11,522 nt of DNA from positions 1 through 11,522 of the forward strand of contig CAMDRY010000064.1 in NCBI GenBank assembly GCA_945906975.1. The letters are read 5' to 3'. This document shows positions 496 through 8,666 of this stretch, piece after piece. The first letter of the stretch is position 1; each line of letters opens with the position of its first letter. Source of the stretch: Bordetella parapertussis. Its GTDB lineage: Bacteria; Pseudomonadota; Gammaproteobacteria; Burkholderiales; SG8-39. The notes under the pieces are model-generated. The model was given only the letters and a program-made list of their open reading frames with translations, was not told the origin of the DNA and did not search any database. The position numbers and the translations under genes are program-made.

Positions 496-2349
496 GTGTT
501 TGCGGAATCACAAGGGAGCTTAATCATCGTCAAGACCGATTTGTCCTCCGGCGGCGAGGCCGGGGGCGGGGTGAGTGGGTCCGCCGCTAGGCCGCTATTG
601 GCAGGCTTTCGCGAGGGCAGGCTTGCGGCGCGTTTCCTGCCCGAGCGCGTTGCGCTGCTCTATCATTTTGATGATCGCGATGTGCTGCCGCTGGTGCTGA
701 TTGCGGGGATTGCCGGCTTCACGCTCTGGGGCTTTATTCATCCGCCCCTCCTCGCATCTCTCCTGGCTTGGTTTGTGCTGATGCGCATCGCCCGTGCCGG
801 CATTTCAGTCATTTACCGCCGCGCAAATCCGCCCGCCGAGGCGGCGGCGCGCTGGGAAGATTTTTATTGCATCATGGCCGTGCTCTTTGGCGCCGCCTGG
901 GGCCTTGTGTCGGTGTATTTTTACGCAAGCCGGGACCTGTTCCAGGAACTGACCGTCACCTTTCTCATCAGCCTGGGCGCGTTCGGATTGCCGGCCTCGC
1001 TCGCCGCCAGTCCCAAGACCTTTGTCGGTTTCATGGTGCCGCTGGCGACGCCGCTCGTCGGCCTGTTGCTGGCGCGAGGCGGTGCGGTGAACATCTCCGT
1101 GGCGATGATGCTGCTGCTTTATTTGGCCATGGTGTTGTGGCTGTACCTTTCGGCCAACCGCGCGTTGCTAGACAAACTAGAGCTCGATGCGAAGAACGAT
1201 GAGCTCACCAATGAGGTGAAAATCGCCAAGGAGCGTTTATCCCTCGCCATGCGCTCGTCCCAGGTGACCATCTGGGAGTGGAGCGCTGTGCGCGGCAATA
1301 TTTATGTCGACGAGGCGCACGCCACAACGCGCGGTCTTGCCTCCGGTGAGCGCTACTTGCAGCTTGAAGAAGCGCTTGATCTGACCCATCCGGACGACAG
1401 GCAGATGATTGTCAATCTGGTGCGTGACTGCCTCAAGGGCGAAGCGCTCAGGTTCCATGTCGAGGCCCGCGTGCGCAAGGCTGACGGCGACTGGATGTGG
1501 GTGTTCGGCCGCGGCCAGGTGGTCGAGCGTGACGCCAAGGGACAGGCGTTGCGCATGATTGGCACCAATGTCGATATCAGCCAGCGCAAACTGGCCGAGG
1601 GCGAATTGATGGCCTCGTTGCAGCGTGAAAAAGAATTGTCCGACATGAAGTCCAAGTTCGTATCCATGGCATCGCATGAGTTTCGTACCCCGCTGGCGAC
1701 CATTCTGTCCTCGTCCGAGCTGATCGAGCATTATTCGGAGACGCTGAGCGCGGAGGATCGCGCCGGCGTGATCGGCGGCATGAAGGATGCGGTGAAGCGC
1801 ATGTCGGCTTTGCTCGATGATGTGCTGACGATAGGCAAGGCCGAGGCCGGCGTGCTCAAATACCACGGCGAATCGGTGTACTTGCGTTCTTTTTGCGAGA
1901 GCCTTGCGGCGACATTCGGGCAGAACGCGGGCAAGCAGCACACGCTCCAGTTCAAGCACAACCTGACGGACGACGAGCCGGTCGAAACGGACGAGCGTCT
2001 GCTGCACCACATCATGGACAACCTGCTGACCAATGCGGCCAAGTATTCGCCGCCGGGCAAACCCATCCTCTTTGGTGTTCATCGTCAGGGCATGGAATTG
2101 CTGGTTACTGTGGCCGACCAGGGCATCGGTGTTCCGGAAAAAGACCAAGCGCGCCTGTTCGAGGGGTTTTTCCGCGCATCCAACGTCGAGAAAAGGCTGG
2201 GTACAGGGCTTGGTCTTGCCATCGTCAAAAAAGCCGTCGAGTCGCATGGGGGCACGATCAGTTTCGTCAGTGAGCAGGGCAAGGGCACACGCTTCGAAGT
2301 GCGTCTGCCGCTGCGGGGGGCCTCGGGCGAGGCCGAGGCCGGCCATTGA
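496..2349 (+). CDS. Membrane sensor histidine kinase (6 TM, PAS, HisKA, HATPase)
   Basis: A 617-residue hybrid-free sensor kinase of the inner membrane. From about residue 60 to 230 there are six hydrophobic segments, resembling a MASE-like integral membrane sensor; I cannot assign a named family. A PAS_3-like domain follows at roughly 245-370, with the typical DLTHPDDR and MIGTNVDISQRK ends. A HisKA domain carries SHEFRTPL with the phospho-accepting His394. The HATPase_c domain has the N box NLLTNAAKYSP (second conserved Asn about 513), the G1 box DQGIG (Asp541) and the G2 box GTGLGLAIV (569 onward). All kinase boxes look intact, so it should autophosphorylate and pass phosphate to the receiver encoded 13 bases downstream, its obvious partner. 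The GTG at 496 gives the longest frame, but the start is uncertain; GTG 571 would still keep every domain. The signal sensed is unknown. Confidence 0.93.
   Translation: MFAESQGSLIIVKTDLSSGGEAGGGVSGSAARPLLAGFREGRLAARFLPERVALLYHFDDRDVLPLVLIAGIAGFTLWGFIHPPLLASLLAWFVLMRIARAGISVIYRRANPPAEAAARWEDFYCIMAVLFGAAWGLVSVYFYASRDLFQELTVTFLISLGAFGLPASLAASPKTFVGFMVPLATPLVGLLLARGGAVNISVAMMLLLYLAMVLWLYLSANRALLDKLELDAKNDELTNEVKIAKERLSLAMRSSQVTIWEWSAVRGNIYVDEAHATTRGLASGERYLQLEEALDLTHPDDRQMIVNLVRDCLKGEALRFHVEARVRKADGDWMWVFGRGQVVERDAKGQALRMIGTNVDISQRKLAEGELMASLQREKELSDMKSKFVSMASHEFRTPLATILSSSELIEHYSETLSAEDRAGVIGGMKDAVKRMSALLDDVLTIGKAEAGVLKYHGESVYLRSFCESLAATFGQNAGKQHTLQFKHNLTDDEPVETDERLLHHIMDNLLTNAAKYSPPGKPILFGVHRQGMELLVTVADQGIGVPEKDQARLFEGFFRASNVEKRLGTGLGLAIVKKAVESHGGTISFVSEQGKGTRFEVRLPLRGASGEAEAGH
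513..518 (+). promoter_or_regulatory. Strong Shine-Dalgarno-like site lacking a standard start codon at the right distance
   Basis: AGGGAG is the best ribosome-binding match near the kinase start, but the in-frame codons 4 and 7 bases after it are ATC (523 and 526). The usable standard starts are GTG at 496, TTG at 541 and GTG at 571. The site therefore leaves the kinase N-terminus uncertain by up to 25 residues, or hints at an ATC start. Confidence 0.35.
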
Positions 2350-2362
2350 CGCGGGAGCGCAC

Positions 2363-4423
2363 ATGAAACAGAAAATACTGGTGATCGAGGACGAGGCCTC
2401 CATCCGCACCAACATCAGCCTTATGCTCAGGGGCGAGGGCTACGATGTGCGCAATGCCGAGAACGGCCGGCGCGGGGTGGAAGTGGCGCTGGACTACCTG
2501 CCCGACCTGGTGCTGTGCGATGTAATGATGCCCGAGATGGACGGCTTTGGCGTGCTCGATGCGCTGCGTTCCGAGGTGCGATTCGCAGACATACCGTTCA
2601 TTTTCCTGACCGCGCTGGACGATCGTGCCAGCATGCGCCGCGGCATGAACCTTGGCGCCGATGACTACCTGACCAAACCATTCACGCGCGATGACCTCAT
2701 CGAGGCGGTCACCAGCCGGCTAAAGCGCCATGCCGAGATTGAGAACGTGTTCGAGGGCCGCTTGACGCTCAAGGTCGACGAACTGCAGGCCCAATATGCC
2801 GGCCAGCTCGCGGGCAATGGCGCGCTGGAGATCGTCGAAAAGGTGGATCTGCGAGGCAGGACCGGACGCATGCTCAATGCCACAGTGCTGTTCTCCGATA
2901 TCCGCAATTTCACCACCTATTCGGAGCGCCTTACGGCTGCCGATACGGCCCTGCTGCTCAACACTTATTTCGAGCGCGCCTGCCAGCCCATCCTCGCGCA
3001 AGGCGGGCGCATCACCAAGCTGCTTGGCGACGGCGTGATGGTGCTGTTCGAGCCGACCGACGCCGACCCCAACCACGCCAGGCGGGCTTTGCGCGCGGCG
3101 CTGGGTTTGGCCGTTGTTGCGCATCGTTTTCGCGACTGGGTGCATGAAAAACACGGCACCAGCACCTTGCCCGAGTTCAGTGTCGGTTCGGGCCTGCACA
3201 CCGGGGAGATCATGATGTGCCAGGTCGGCGCGCATGGCAATCAGGAGTGGACGGTGATCGGAGACTCGGTCAACGTCGCCTCGCGGCTCGAGGGCAAGAC
3301 CAAGGAATTGGGCTGGGTGGTTGTGGCAAGCCGTGCCACTGTCGAGGCGGCCGGTTCCGGTGTGTCGCGCGGGGCCGATGCAAAAATTTTCCTGCGCGGG
3401 CGTTCCGAACCAATCGAGGTGTTTGAGGTGATCGGCGTTGGCCAGGACGGGCAGAGGACGGCGGGCAATTTCGAACTGCCGAAAAGTGTGCGCGACGCGC
3501 TTCGCGCCAACGCCACCAATACCGCCGAGGCGGCCAAGGGGGCGCTCAACGAGGCGCTGCGCCTTATCACCTCGCAGATCAGCGGCGACTTGGCCAAACC
3601 CTTGAGTATTGCCGGTTACTGCATCATCGGCAAAATCGGTGAAGGGGGTATGTCCAGCGTCTACCTGGCAAAGCGCGAAAGCGACAACGCCGAGGTGGTC
3701 CTCAAGATTGTCAGCGCCGCGGGCAACAAGGACATGATCGACCGCTTCATGCGCGAAGCCCAGATACTGGCCTCGATCGACCACCCCAACGTGGTGAAAA
3801 TTTTCGACCAGGGCTTTGGCAAGGAATACGCCTACATCGCCATGGAATACTTCAACGGCGGCACCTTGTCAGACCTGATCAGGGGCGGCCTGACACCGCG
3901 CGAGACGATGTCGCTGCTGGCGCAGGCGGCCGGCGCGCTGGGTGAGATCCACCGCCGCGGCATCATCCACCGCGACATCAAGCCGGCCAATATGATGGTC
4001 CGGGCCGATGGCACCATCGGGCTGGTGGATTTTGGCGTGGCGCGCAAGACCGATGCGACAAATCTGGAGATGACGCAGCACGGCCTTGTGTTTGGCACGC
4101 CTTACTATCTTTCGCCCGAGCAGGCGAGCGGCGTGCCCGCGCTCGAGGGCTCTGATATCTACAGCCTTGGCATCATCTTTTATGAAATGCTGACGCAAAA
4201 GCGCCCCTACAACGACGACAATATGATCGACATCCTCAACCAGCACATAAACTCGCCGGTGCCGTGCCTGCCCGATGAGCTTTCCGGCTACCAGGACTTG
4301 CTCAATCGCATGATGGCGAAAAAGCTGTCCGAGCGTTTCGCCAGCGCAGATGCGGTGCTCGAGGCCATTGATGCGCTGTGGACAAAAATCGCCATTGCCA
4401 CGGCGCAGATGAGCTCACGCTAG
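2363..4423 (+). CDS. Fusion response regulator: receiver, class III nucleotide cyclase, Ser/Thr kinase
   Basis: A 686-residue soluble protein with three signalling modules. Residues 1-120 are a CheY-like receiver with acidic pocket E9/D10, phospho-acceptor D53, T83 and K105. Residues about 170-355 are a class III adenylate/guanylate cyclase domain: metal ligands D179 and D223, purine-contact K219 and T297, and transition-state residues N304 and R308 in GDSVNVASR. The Lys/Thr pair fits ATP rather than GTP as substrate. Residues about 418-680 are a Hanks-type kinase: glycine loop GEGGMSSV (426-433), K448, E465, HRDIKPAN (D538, N543), DFG (D556) and SPE (584-586). No transmembrane, PASTA or DNA-binding part is seen. 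The ATG at 2363 has GGGAG five bases upstream; the open frame extends back into the kinase gene, but the receiver begins exactly here. Inference: the upstream kinase phosphorylates D53, which gates cAMP synthesis, protein phosphorylation, or both. Confidence 0.94.
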   Translation: MKQKILVIEDEASIRTNISLMLRGEGYDVRNAENGRRGVEVALDYLPDLVLCDVMMPEMDGFGVLDALRSEVRFADIPFIFLTALDDRASMRRGMNLGADDYLTKPFTRDDLIEAVTSRLKRHAEIENVFEGRLTLKVDELQAQYAGQLAGNGALEIVEKVDLRGRTGRMLNATVLFSDIRNFTTYSERLTAADTALLLNTYFERACQPILAQGGRITKLLGDGVMVLFEPTDADPNHARRALRAALGLAVVAHRFRDWVHEKHGTSTLPEFSVGSGLHTGEIMMCQVGAHGNQEWTVIGDSVNVASRLEGKTKELGWVVVASRATVEAAGSGVSRGADAKIFLRGRSEPIEVFEVIGVGQDGQRTAGNFELPKSVRDALRANATNTAEAAKGALNEALRLITSQISGDLAKPLSIAGYCIIGKIGEGGMSSVYLAKRESDNAEVVLKIVSAAGNKDMIDRFMREAQILASIDHPNVVKIFDQGFGKEYAYIAMEYFNGGTLSDLIRGGLTPRETMSLLAQAAGALGEIHRRGIIHRDIKPANMMVRADGTIGLVDFGVARKTDATNLEMTQHGLVFGTPYYLSPEQASGVPALEGSDIYSLGIIFYEMLTQKRPYNDDNMIDILNQHINSPVPCLPDELSGYQDLLNRMMAKKLSERFASADAVLEAIDALWTKIAIATAQMSSR

Positions 4424-4526: not shown

Positions 4527-5776
<1,250 letters not shown>

Positions 5777-5807
5777 CTAATAAGGTGCAGGAGGCCAGTT
5801 TATACCA

Positions 5808-5833
5808 CCGTCAGGCTTCGCCCCGCCTGCCGG
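5808..5833 (-). terminator. Hairpin just after the HIRAN gene, possible attenuator
   Basis: CCGTCAGGC (5808-5816) and GCCTGCCGG (5825-5833) form a nine-base stem with one mismatch and an eight-base loop, six bases past the HIRAN stop codon and about 105 bases before the isomerase start. There is no T tract downstream on the minus strand, so it may act as an RNA-processing or partial-termination structure rather than a full terminator. Confidence 0.35.
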
Positions 5834-5838
5834 CGTGC

Positions 5839-6270
5839 TTATTCCACAAACACTTCAAATTCAATCCGTTTGCGCGGATTGCGTTCCGTGCGCAATGCGC
5901 TGATGCGCGCGCTGATCGTTTCGCCGCGATCCATGGCCCAGGCGAGGGCGGTGTTTTGCGTGCGCGGTACATAGCCCAGTTTGTGGCCGCGCCACAGCAC
6001 CGCCACCGCGTTGGCATCGTGCGGATTGTCGGCCTCGCGCACCAGCGCCAGGGTATCGCCGCGAGACAAACCGGCCCACAGCGCGCGCCCCTCGTGGTGG
6101 CTGAAGCCGGCCAGGGGGGAGCTTTGCACCAGCATGCGCACCTGCTGCGCCGCCGCGGGTGCCGCGGCGCCCCACCATAAGGCCGCCAGCAACGCGGCCG
6201 CAGCGAGCCTGCGGGTCCGGGCCCGAGGCGGGCTATCCGGCGCTATTCGCCGAAGGCGTCGCGCAGCCAT
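5839..6270 (-). CDS. Exported HIRAN-domain protein
   Basis: A 143-residue protein. Residues 1-41 form a long, strongly basic leader followed by a hydrophobic core (LAAAALLAALWWG) and an AAA-QQ cleavage site, so export to the periplasm is predicted. Residues 44-143 match the HIRAN domain: LSRGDTLALVREADNPHDAN (68-87), then AVAVLWRGHKLGYVPR (88-103). HIRAN domains are best known as DNA-binding modules of HLTF/Rad5-type helicases, but stand-alone bacterial forms exist with unknown role; a periplasmic one would not obviously bind DNA. The start overlaps the end of yraN by 28 bases, so the two are co-transcribed and perhaps coupled. No strong ribosome site is visible and the 20-residue basic lead is long, but no later start keeps the signal peptide. 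This gene is absent from the equivalent E. coli locus. Confidence 0.82.
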   Translation of the reverse strand: MAARRLRRIAPDSPPRARTRRLAAAALLAALWWGAAAPAAAQQVRMLVQSSPLAGFSHHEGRALWAGLSRGDTLALVREADNPHDANAVAVLWRGHKLGYVPRTQNTALAWAMDRGETISARISALRTERNPRKRIEFEVFVE

Positions 6271-6590
6271 TCAACCGCCGCCGCGTCGAGCCGGTCGAGT
6301 ACGATCACATCGAAACGGCAGGCCTGGTCGGGTTTGTCCATGAGGTAGTAACGCGCGGCGGTGAGGATGCGATGACGCTTTTTTGCATCAATGCTCGCCG
6401 CCGCGCCGCCGAAGGCCCGGCTGGCGCGATAACGCACCTCGGCGAAGACCAGGCTTGCGCCATCGCGCAGGATCAGGTCGATTTCGCCGGCGCGGCAGCG
6501 AAAATTGCGCGCCACCAGGTGCAGGCCCTGCTTTTGCAACCAGTTTGCGGCGATATCCTCGGCGGTTTTGCCCGAGCCCGGTTTCAACAC
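6243..6590 (-). CDS. yraN: YraN/UPF0102-family nuclease-fold protein
   Basis: A 115-residue protein of the YraN family, which has an endonuclease-like fold related to archaeal Holliday-junction resolvases; its cellular role is not settled. The key segments are present: GKTAEDIAANWLQKQG at the N-terminus, GEIDLI with E36 and D38, and AEVRYR with E51. The usual lysine of the EVK motif is Arg53 here, a common variant. Length is normal for the family. The start is GTG at 6590 with AGGGGA eight bases upstream; the next codon, TTG, could also serve. It lies 63 bases after the lpoA-like gene and overlaps the following HIRAN gene. Confidence 0.9.
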   Translation of the reverse strand: MLKPGSGKTAEDIAANWLQKQGLHLVARNFRCRAGEIDLILRDGASLVFAEVRYRASRAFGGAAASIDAKKRHRILTAARYYLMDKPDQACRFDVIVLDRLDAAAVEWLRDAFGE

Positions 6591-6653
6591 GCTTGTTTTC
6601 CCCTGCTGTTTTTTTGCCTTTTTCCGACCCTGCCGCTGCCCAACCTGGGCGTG

Positions 6654-7778
6654 TCAGCGCGAAGGGCTCAGCGCTATCGCGGCACCGTCGCGAAACTGCG
6701 CTGCGACCGCTTCGCGTTCAACCATTCCGCGCAGTAAGGTCAGCTTGCCGGTGACCCCGTCCAGGGTGATGCCGCTGCGCTTGCGCACCAACTCCGAGGC
6801 GAGGCGAAAGGCGTCCACCCCGAGCGCGTAAAAGCGTTGCAACTCCGGGGCGATGCTGTCAAAGCGCGGATAGCTCATCACCGCCGGGTGATCGGGCTGC
6901 ACCAGCCAGGGCATTTCGACAAAGCGGATGCCGTTAAGGTCGACATTGGCGAGCGCATCGTTGCGTCCTGAGTAGACCAGCGAGGTGGCATAGGTGGGCA
7001 GCGCGGCCGACAGGAAGGGCCTGACCTGGCGCGCCTGCTCGACATCGGCGGCAAGGAAAATCCCGTCGGCCCCGCTGTTGGTGACAATGAGCTTGAGTTG
7101 CGCAAGCTCGGAGGCCGGGGTGAACTCAAGGGAATCGCTGATGACGCCGCCAAGCGCGCGAAAACTTTCGCTGAACGCGAGGCTGGCGCGGCGTGCCAGC
7201 GGGGATGCTGCGGTGACGGCCAGCACGTCCTTGATGCCATCGATCCAGGCCTGTAGCGCGACCTGGCGCGCCTCCAGTTCTATCGACAGGCCGAAGCCGT
7301 AGAGCTTTTCCGGCATGTTGGCTTGCGGCTCGGGGTAATTGAGCGCAAGGGTCGGCACATTGACGCGGCCGCTGGCGGCAAGGGCGGCGACGCCCGATCG
7401 CGTCAGCGGGCCGACCACCACCTTCGCGCCGGCGCGCACGGCGGCATCGTACTCGAGCATGATGTTCTCGCCCGAGGCGTCGGTGGCCCGAATGGTGACC
7501 GAGATCTTGTCGCCGTCGCGCTCGCGCGCAGTCATAAAGCCCAGGCGCAGCGTATCGGCGGCGGCCTGGAAATCAGCCGATTTGAGCGGCAGCAGCAGGG
7601 CGATCTCGCCGGCCGGCTGCAGCGGCAGCGTAGCCGCCGCTCCGGCCGCAGCCGCGGTGGGCGCGTTTCCGGTGCTTGCCGCTTTGCCCTGGGCCGCGCA
7701 CAATGCCGGCGCCAGCAGTAATAAGGGCAGCAATGACCACATCAACCGAAGCCGCGTAACGCCATGACCAAGCCGCAT
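6654..7778 (-). CDS. lpoA: LpoA/LppC-like penicillin-binding-protein activator, single-domain form
   Basis: A 374-residue exported protein with the type I periplasmic-binding fold of the LppC family; E. coli LpoA activates the peptidoglycan synthase PBP1A from the outer membrane. Typical segments are GEIALLLPLKSADFQAAADT, VVVGPLTRSGVAAL, LALNYPE, DGIFLAADVEQARQVRPFL and FYALGVDAFRLASEL. It is about half the length of E. coli LpoA, lacking the N-terminal TPR part. The leader ends LLAPALCAAQ, which is not a good lipobox, so the product may be a soluble periplasmic protein. I chose the ATG at 7778 (MRLGHGVTRL) because AGGTG lies seven bases upstream; the ATG at 7742 (MWSLLPLLLL) also gives a signal peptide and would avoid overlapping rsmI. 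It is the first gene of the minus-strand envelope cluster. Confidence 0.87.
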   Translation of the reverse strand: MRLGHGVTRLRLMWSLLPLLLLAPALCAAQGKAASTGNAPTAAAAGAAATLPLQPAGEIALLLPLKSADFQAAADTLRLGFMTARERDGDKISVTIRATDASGENIMLEYDAAVRAGAKVVVGPLTRSGVAALAASGRVNVPTLALNYPEPQANMPEKLYGFGLSIELEARQVALQAWIDGIKDVLAVTAASPLARRASLAFSESFRALGGVISDSLEFTPASELAQLKLIVTNSGADGIFLAADVEQARQVRPFLSAALPTYATSLVYSGRNDALANVDLNGIRFVEMPWLVQPDHPAVMSYPRFDSIAPELQRFYALGVDAFRLASELVRKRSGITLDGVTGKLTLLRGMVEREAVAAQFRDGAAIALSPSR

Positions 7779-8666
7779 GAGCACACACCTGTGATTGGGG
7801 CCCGCATTGAGGGAGGCCAATTATATGTGGTCGCCACGCCCCTTGGTAATCTGGGCGATATCACGCTGCGTGCGCTGGAAACGCTGCGCGGCGCCGACCT
7901 GGTCGCCGCCGAGGATACGCGCACCACGGCCAATCTGCTGGCCCATCACGGCATCAAGGCCAGGTTGCTGGCCTTGCACGAACACAATGAGGCGCGCGCC
8001 GCCGACAAACTGATCGCTGCGCTCGCCGCCGGGCAATCGGTGGCCCTGGTCAGCGATGCCGGCACCCCGGCCATCTCCGATCCGGGGGCGCTGGCCGTTG
8101 CGCGCGTGCTCGATGCAGGTTATCGCGTCACCCCCATTCCCGGCCCCAACGCCGCGATCACCGCGCTTTCTGCGGCCGGCATGGTTGAAACGGCATTTTT
8201 GTTTTACGGTTTTTTGCCGGCCAAGGCGGGGGCGCGGCGCAAGGTGCTCGAGTCTTTGTGCGGCCTGCCGCACGCGCTGGTTTTTTACGAGGCACCGCAT
8301 CGCATCGCCGAGTGCATTGACGACCTCGCCGAGAGCTTCGAGCCCGGACGCACCGTGGTGCTGGCGCGCGAACTGACCAAGATGTTCGAGTCGATTCATC
8401 GCTGCCGGCTTGACCAGGCGCAGGCCTGGCTTGCCGCCGACGACAACAACCGCCGCGGTGAATTTGTGCTGATCGTATCCGGCGCCCCTGAGGCCGAGGC
8501 CGAGCTCGATGCCGAGGCCGAGCGCGTACTGGCCCTCGTTGCCGCCGAACTGCCACCGGCCAAGGCCGCCAAGCTTGCGGCCGCGATCACCGGCGTGCCG
8601 CGGGACGTGCTCTACGCACATGCGCTGGCGCGCGCCGGTCGCCGCAATGATGATGATGGGGTTTGA
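7764..8666 (+). CDS. rsmI: 16S rRNA (cytidine1402-2'-O)-methyltransferase
   Basis: A 300-residue SAM-dependent enzyme of the tetrapyrrole-methylase fold that 2'-O-methylates C1402 in the decoding centre of 16S rRNA. Diagnostic segments are LYVVATPLGNLGDIT (20-34), LVAAEDTR (46-53), ALVSDAGTPAISDPG (94-108), PGPNAAITALSAAG, and FYGFLPAKAGARR; a C-terminal helical RsmI tail follows, with an unusual Ala/Glu-rich stretch near EAEAELDAEAE. The length is slightly above the E. coli protein (286). The ATG at 7764 fits the family N-terminus; no ribosome site is obvious. It is divergent from the lpoA-like gene, as in many proteobacteria, and its 5' end overlaps that gene by up to 15 bases. A hairpin repeat follows 20 bases after the stop. 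Confidence 0.95.
   Translation: MTKPHEHTPVIGARIEGGQLYVVATPLGNLGDITLRALETLRGADLVAAEDTRTTANLLAHHGIKARLLALHEHNEARAADKLIAALAAGQSVALVSDAGTPAISDPGALAVARVLDAGYRVTPIPGPNAAITALSAAGMVETAFLFYGFLPAKAGARRKVLESLCGLPHALVFYEAPHRIAECIDDLAESFEPGRTVVLARELTKMFESIHRCRLDQAQAWLAADDNNRRGEFVLIVSGAPEAEAELDAEAERVLALVAAELPPAKAAKLAAAITGVPRDVLYAHALARAGRRNDDDGV
7820..7849 (-). promoter_or_regulatory. Candidate sigma70 promoter of the lpoA-yraN-HIRAN-gmhA-dolP cluster, inside rsmI
   Basis: On the minus strand a perfect TATAAT (plus-strand 7820-7825) lies 18 bases after TTACCA (7844-7849), four of six matches to TTGACA. Transcription would begin near 7813, leaving about 35 bases to the ATG at 7778. It sits entirely inside the rsmI coding frame, which the lack of an intergenic gap makes necessary. 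Confidence 0.5.

What the first reader, a model, noticed from the sequence alone, without database searches (positions are those of the whole stretch)
2363..4423. Receiver + class III cyclase + Ser/Thr kinase in one soluble protein
The translation shows all three modules with their catalytic residues: D53; D179/K219/D223/T297/N304/R308; K448/E465/D538/D556. Receiver-cyclase proteins and Hanks kinases are each well known, but this three-way order is rare or undescribed as far as I know. One phosphorylation event could control both cAMP and protein phosphorylation.
Basis: partly seen in the sequence, partly recalled or inferred. Interest (0 to 1): 0.8.

Follow-up and report, generated by a model that had tools for sequence, protein, structure and literature searches.

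The report
Response regulator with two enzymes
A bacterium, probably a betaproteobacterium, carries a switch protein that joins a phosphorylation receiver, a probable cAMP-making enzyme and a protein kinase in one chain, next to its likely sensor; many relatives exist but their function appears untested, so one signal might drive two signalling outputs at once.

Summary
"Rare" does not hold: the 120 best database matches all carry the three domains at 53-96% identity, and 28 of 98 genomes of one family match. The lineage looks narrow: no match spanned all three in 187 Myxococcota or 146 Cyanobacteria. "Undescribed" rests on ten weak paper searches. New here: a membrane PAS histidine kinase ends 13 bases upstream; it is the upstream neighbour in 21 of 23 family loci with room to show it. 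Receiver and kinase catalytic residues, and four of six cyclase ones, are invariant in 121 sequences (window plus 120). In remoter relatives the receiver or cyclase sometimes decays while the kinase stays. Best reading: the histidine kinase phosphorylates the receiver, a long helix drives pairing, and this turns on cAMP synthesis and kinase trans-autophosphorylation together. Anatomy, conservation and gene pairing are shown; activities and coupling are inferred.

The parts
2363..4423 (+). receiver-cyclase-kinase protein (RCK), 686 aa
   Evidence: translation; Pfam; 121-sequence set
2375..2710 (+). receiver domain, residues 5-116; D10, D53, T83, K105 invariant in 121 of 121
2687..2809 (+). predicted continuous helix, residues 109-149, from the last receiver helix towards the cyclase (pLDDT under 50 in 130-141)
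   Evidence: AlphaFold2 model
2873..3436 (+). class III cyclase domain, residues 171-358 (Pfam match 171-322; the end at 358 is from the family profile made here); metal D179/D223, substrate K219/T297, transition-state N304/R308 (roles recalled)
3482..3577 (+). predicted helix, residues 374-405, between cyclase and kinase
   Evidence: AlphaFold2 model
3623..4351 (+). PknB-like Ser/Thr kinase domain, residues 421-663; K448, E465, HRD 536-538, N543, DFG 556-558, activation-loop T571
496..2349 (+). likely cognate membrane sensor histidine kinase: hydrophobic segments within residues 62-221, PAS_3, HisKA (His394 in SHEFRTPL), HATPase_c; its stop codon ends 13 bases before RCK; the start codon is uncertain
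2353..2357 (+). GGGAG, likely ribosome-binding site of RCK
   Evidence: sequence printed

Best explanation
It is the response regulator of a two-component system with two enzymatic outputs in one chain. The membrane PAS histidine kinase encoded just upstream phosphorylates D53 of the receiver (inferred from adjacency and conserved residues). The phosphorylated receivers pair, and the long helix 109-149 brings two cyclase domains together; homodimeric class III cyclases need pairing to be active (established knowledge), so ATP is turned into cAMP. The same pairing brings two C-terminal kinase domains side by side so that they phosphorylate each other's activation loop (T571), as PknB-type kinases do (recalled), and then act on target proteins. 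One signal would thus give both a diffusible messenger and protein phosphorylation. Shown: domains, catalytic residues, their conservation, the conserved gene pair. Inferred: phosphotransfer, both activities, dimer switching, targets.
For: Three domains with intact residues. D10, D53, T83, K105, D179, D223, N304, R308, K448, E465, D538, N543, D556 invariant in 121 of 121; K219 in 117, T297 in 119. Loci were fetched for 26 of the 28 positive family genomes (not G390, G393): histidine kinase upstream on the same strand, directly or with a lone receiver between, in 21 of 26; 3 of the other 5 end too soon to tell. H-box present in 22 of 22 paired kinases (21 loci plus window), and identities of paired kinase and RCK rise together, Spearman 0.88, which shared descent alone could also give. 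Five of 14 further order-level loci instead have a large hybrid histidine kinase right downstream, 2 have a histidine kinase upstream. Long helices join the modules. K and T at the purine positions agree with ATP use: of the two best solved relatives the first has E and the second has K at the K219 position (alignments; that these are the guanylyl cyclase Cya2 and a converted form is recalled). cNMP-binding domains occur in 98 of 98 genomes of the family. Precedent: a paper titled as showing activation of cyanobacterial CyaC by phosphotransfer, seen only in the reference list of PMC1183210, whose text also names CheY-AC response regulators.
Against: No activity was measured. The model is a monomer with weak domain packing (pTM 0.46; residues 130-141, 152-166, 408-411 and 558-578 under pLDDT 50). 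cNMP-binding domains occur in genomes with and without RCK alike, and the domain does not prove cAMP binding. In group B (120 proteins) 13 cyclases lack catalytic residues and, 9 receivers have another residue at D53, while the kinase residues are kept in all 120, so the three functions are not always kept together. Of the 26 family-level loci, L145 and L146 have room but no histidine kinase upstream; 7 of 14 order-level loci show none nearby with the single-sequence profile used.
Confidence: 0.55

Rival explanations
1. The kinase is the only essential output. The cyclase serves mainly as a nucleotide-sensing pairing module between receiver and kinase, and cAMP made by it is minor or local.
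For: Kinase residues K448, E465, H536, D538, N543, D556 intact in 241 of 241 database proteins, while 13 of 120 group B cyclases are degenerate; degenerate cyclases also in loci L146, L148, L158, L160 and in the second protein of L145.
Against: In the window's own set D179, D223, N304 and R308 are invariant in 121 of 121, which a mere scaffold would not need. One fetched locus, L144, reads G at the DFG Asp, so the kinase is not beyond decay either.
Confidence: 0.18
2. The kinase is a regulator, not an output: it phosphorylates its own receiver, helix or cyclase and so sets cAMP synthesis; the protein is in effect a doubly controlled adenylyl cyclase.
For: Both enzymes lie in one chain with low-confidence joints in the model; the cyclase of the window set is fully conserved at four of six residues and nearly so at the other two.
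Against: The kinase is kept in relatives whose cyclase has decayed, so it must do something else there.
Confidence: 0.15
3. The two outputs are switched oppositely: phosphorylation of the receiver turns one enzyme on and the other off.
For: Nothing in the sequence fixes the sign of control; two separate joining helices could work differently.
Against: Both enzyme types are generally activated by pairing (established knowledge), favouring the same sign.
Confidence: 0.1
4. Assembly artefact fusing separate genes.
For: None found.
Against: Same order in 236 of 241 proteins and near-full single-piece matches in 25 of 98 genomes of the family.
Confidence: 0.01

Closest known systems
CheY-AC response regulators and the cyanobacterial cyclase CyaC
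   Same: receiver in front of a class III cyclase; phosphotransfer as the switch (CheY-AC named in PMC1183210; CyaC paper seen only by title in its reference list). Matches spanning receiver and cyclase but not kinase were found in 6 of 146 Cyanobacteria.
   Different: no Ser/Thr kinase behind the cyclase; CyaC carries its own histidine kinase (recalled).
Myxococcus xanthus PKN2 (kinase + cyclase-like region; passages of PMC1262709)
   Same: Ser/Thr kinase and cyclase-like domain in one chain.
   Different: kinase first, membrane segment, no receiver given, nucleotide specificity unclear according to that paper.
TOMM system kinase/cyclase fusion protein (TIGR03903)
   Same: kinase and cyclase in one protein, by its name.
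   Different: 168.6 bits against a cut-off of 705.75; best stretch is the kinase, at the start of the profile, so the order differs.
PknB/Stk1 PASTA kinases
   Same: bacterial StkP, PknB and PknA are the closest solved kinases by sequence, and PknB and PknA lead the fold search.
   Different: 257.3 bits against a cut-off of 450; no PASTA domain or membrane segment.

Membership tests
two-component response regulator | receiver with acidic pair, phospho-acceptor Asp, Thr/Ser and Lys | tested here: met
   E9/D10, D53, T83, K105; D53 in 121 of 121
two-component response regulator | conserved histidine kinase neighbour | tested here: met
   21 of 26 family-level loci plus the window
two-component response regulator | phosphotransfer from that kinase | not testable with these tools
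   assay needed
class III adenylyl cyclase | two metal Asp, substrate Lys and Asp/Thr, Asn and Arg | tested here: met
   D179, D223, K219, T297, N304, R308
class III adenylyl cyclase | makes cAMP | not testable with these tools
   assay needed
Hanks-type Ser/Thr kinase | VAIK-type Lys, helix-C Glu, HRD, DFG, activation-loop Thr | tested here: met
   K448, E465, HRD 536-538, DFG 556-558 in 121 of 121; T571 in 120 of 121, S in one
PASTA kinase (NF033483) | score over curated cut-off | tested here: not met
   257.3 against 450 bits
TOMM kinase/cyclase fusion (TIGR03903) | score over curated cut-off | tested here: not met
   168.6 against 705.75 bits
PD-T4-6 phage-defence kinase (PADLOC) | match beyond a generic kinase domain | tested here: not met
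   the 25 best of 46 matching models cover only the kinase region, within residues 411-681

The most novel reading that the evidence does not exclude
A widespread, uncharacterised, mainly betaproteobacterial class of response regulators in which one Asp phosphorylation switches two catalytic outputs in the same molecule, cAMP synthesis and Ser/Thr phosphorylation, joining three signalling systems (His-Asp, cyclic nucleotide, Hanks kinase) in a single dimeric switch; in side branches the cyclase becomes a pseudo-enzyme that only relays the signal to the kinase.
Probability: 0.45. Interest if true: 0.68.

Novelty: new variant of a known kind. Interest (0 to 1): 0.48.

Why it matters
Bacterial His-Asp, cyclic-nucleotide and Ser/Thr kinase signalling are usually studied apart. 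A conserved chain that holds modules of all three, beside its likely sensor, makes it directly testable whether one phosphorylation event can command a second messenger and a protein kinase together, and whether a cyclase can act as a relay for a kinase.

Tried and rejected
Own genome: none held. A third conserved neighbour as target: in the all-against-all comparison of flanking frames the widest group (31 loci) is the histidine kinases and receivers. Groups of 19 and 14 loci are opposite-strand frames close to the gene, which I take for shadows of coding frames. The other groups hold at most 11 loci each and include some shared upstream or downstream genes (for example L127 with L129-L139, and L001-L005 with L142-L143); these were not identified or followed up. 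Of the window's other gene products only a 38-residue piece of the divergent upstream frame had a match beside the relatives, in L127. cNMP-binding domains as a co-occurrence test: uninformative, 98 of 98. Phage-defence filing: rejected, generic kinase matches. Plasmids: 9 records, kinase part only, none covering 80% of the query. The fold search gave single kinase domains in 49 of the 50 rows shown and one photoactivated cyclase. In the kinase tree the outgroup is only two remote kinases, and long branches make the order of side branches unsure. Paper searches were seen as listings with abstract starts; only two papers were opened, for passages. The terms with underscores were searched without them, so that search says little.

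Full report
What is there. Window 2363-4423 (+) is one open frame of 686 residues. Pfam finds Response_reg at 5-116, Guanylate_cyc at 171-322 and Pkinase at 421-663, each above its curated cut-off. Hydropathy gives no membrane segment for this protein and several within residues 62-221 of the upstream histidine kinase. Among solved structures the kinase is nearest by sequence to StkP, PknB and PknA, and the cyclase to bacterial class III cyclases, including photoactivated ones.

How widespread. The protein search scored 7997 candidates; 3485 passed E 1e-3 and the best 120 were listed. These 120 are 53-96% identical, cover 98-100% of the query and all carry the three Pfam domains. A second search with a remote member (L150) listed 120 of 780 at E 1e-80; no sequence of this second set is identical to one of the first. 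In the 241 proteins (window, 120, 120) the order receiver-cyclase-kinase occurs in 236 and cyclase-kinase in 5; those five are short (497-554 residues) and begin close to the cyclase, so they are probably cut pieces rather than receiver losses. Genome scans: 28 of 98 genomes of the family of G001 match at E 1e-90, 25 of them in one near-full piece and 3 split or cut (G005, G390, G393). Of 399 genomes drawn from the order 17 match, 4 of them shared with the family scan. The 14 loci fetched from the 13 others comprise 11 with all three domains, one cut by the contig end (L155) and two without a detected receiver (L159, L160). Of 369 drawn from the class 11 match at E 1e-70, only G001 over the full length, the other ten by the kinase part alone. 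Myxococcota: 53 of 187 match at E 1e-60, none over all three domains. Cyanobacteria: 6 of 146, over receiver and cyclase only. These scans scored only the few best candidates in each genome, and other phyla were not scanned. So the fusion is common within some Betaproteobacteria and was not seen in the two other phyla sampled.

Conservation. In the 121-sequence alignment (window plus 120) the receiver (D10, D53, T83, K105), cyclase (D179, D223, N304, R308) and kinase (K448, E465, H536, R537, D538, K540, N543, D556) residues are invariant; K219 is kept in 117 (Q in 4) and T297 in 119. In group B (120 proteins of the second search) 13 cyclases have lost N304, R308 and at least one metal Asp. D53 is kept in 104, another residue stands there in 9, 2 have a gap there and 5 have no receiver in the piece held. 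The six kinase residues scored are intact in 241 of 241. Of 41 cyclase-kinase proteins from fetched loci, L144 reads G at the DFG Asp and A at the activation-loop Thr, L160 lacks that Thr, and the kinase part of the split L005 was only partly read. L154, L156 and L157 have degenerate receivers; L146, L148, L158, L160 and the second protein of L145 have degenerate cyclases; L159 has R in place of the substrate Lys. On the kinase tree these cases lie on several separate branches, many of them long or weakly placed, so the number of independent losses is uncertain.

Partner. The histidine kinase (PAS_3, HisKA, HATPase_c) ends 13 bases before the gene; its phospho-acceptor is His394. Loci were fetched for 26 of the 28 positive family genomes. 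In 21 the histidine kinase lies upstream on the same strand, directly or with a lone receiver between (L005 and L106 show only part of it before the contig ends); 3 (L135, L143, L144) run out of contig and 2 (L145, L146) have none there, L146 having a hybrid one 689 bases downstream. Of the 14 further order-level loci 2 (L147, L148) have one upstream, 5 (L149, L150, L152, L153, L155) have a large hybrid histidine kinase directly downstream, and 7 show none with this single-sequence profile, though L151 and L159 have lone receivers nearby. The window's other genes are not found beside the relatives. The paired sequences diverge together (Spearman 0.88 over 22 pairs), which vertical descent would also give.

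Mechanism. The model (34-row alignment, mean pLDDT 78.6, pTM 0.46) shows a helix over residues 109-149, continuing the last receiver helix, and another at 374-405. Together with the need of homodimeric class III cyclases for pairing and the activation of PknB-type kinases by pairing (both recalled), the simplest mechanism is pairing on D53 phosphorylation that turns on both enzymes. Steps shown: anatomy, conservation, gene pairing. Steps inferred: phosphotransfer, both activities, sign of control, targets. The decay of cyclase or receiver in some remoter relatives, with the kinase kept, speaks for the kinase as the output most rarely given up and leaves room for the rival in which the cyclase only relays.

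Literature. Ten searches of the held library gave no listing whose title or abstract start describes this three-way protein; five of them returned no paper at all, so the test is weak. From PMC1262709 I saw passages: PKN2 is given as kinase + guanylate cyclase + membrane segment. From PMC1183210 I saw passages: CheY-AC is named as a response regulator architecture, and its reference list holds a paper titled as showing activation of CyaC by autophosphorylation and phosphotransfer.

Verdict. A real, conserved response regulator with two enzyme modules. Each module is known; the combination is a new variant, common in its lineage, whose function is untested as far as I could find.

Noticed in passing
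L145:7870-11487 (-): Tandem pair: a full receiver-cyclase-kinase gene preceded by a second frame with a degenerate cyclase and an intact kinase (502 residues stop to stop, no receiver); possibly a heterodimer partner.
   Followed up: partly
L005:449-3150: The relative's gene is split over two frames within the kinase part; left as found.
   Followed up: no
L001:11427-13163: A second Ser/Thr kinase gene, 31-36% identical in the kinase part, lies about 1.4 kb downstream, also in L002-L005.
   Followed up: partly
L006-L017 and L019: Betaproteobacterial proteins of 634-672 residues (stop-to-stop frames) with a related cyclase domain (41-53% identity) at the C-terminus behind about 450 residues not identified here.
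   Followed up: no
window 2363-4423: Where public sources name the family they often say PpkA, class 3 adenylate cyclase or protein kinase; none of these names reflects all three domains.
   Followed up: no
window 4527-8666: Neighbouring genes: BON-domain, SIS-domain, HIRAN, UPF0102 and LppC proteins on the minus strand, then a tetrapyrrole-methylase/RsmI-like protein on plus; not found beside the relatives.
   Followed up: partly
four of the 121 sequences: Cyclase residue K219 is Q, which may change substrate choice.
   Followed up: no
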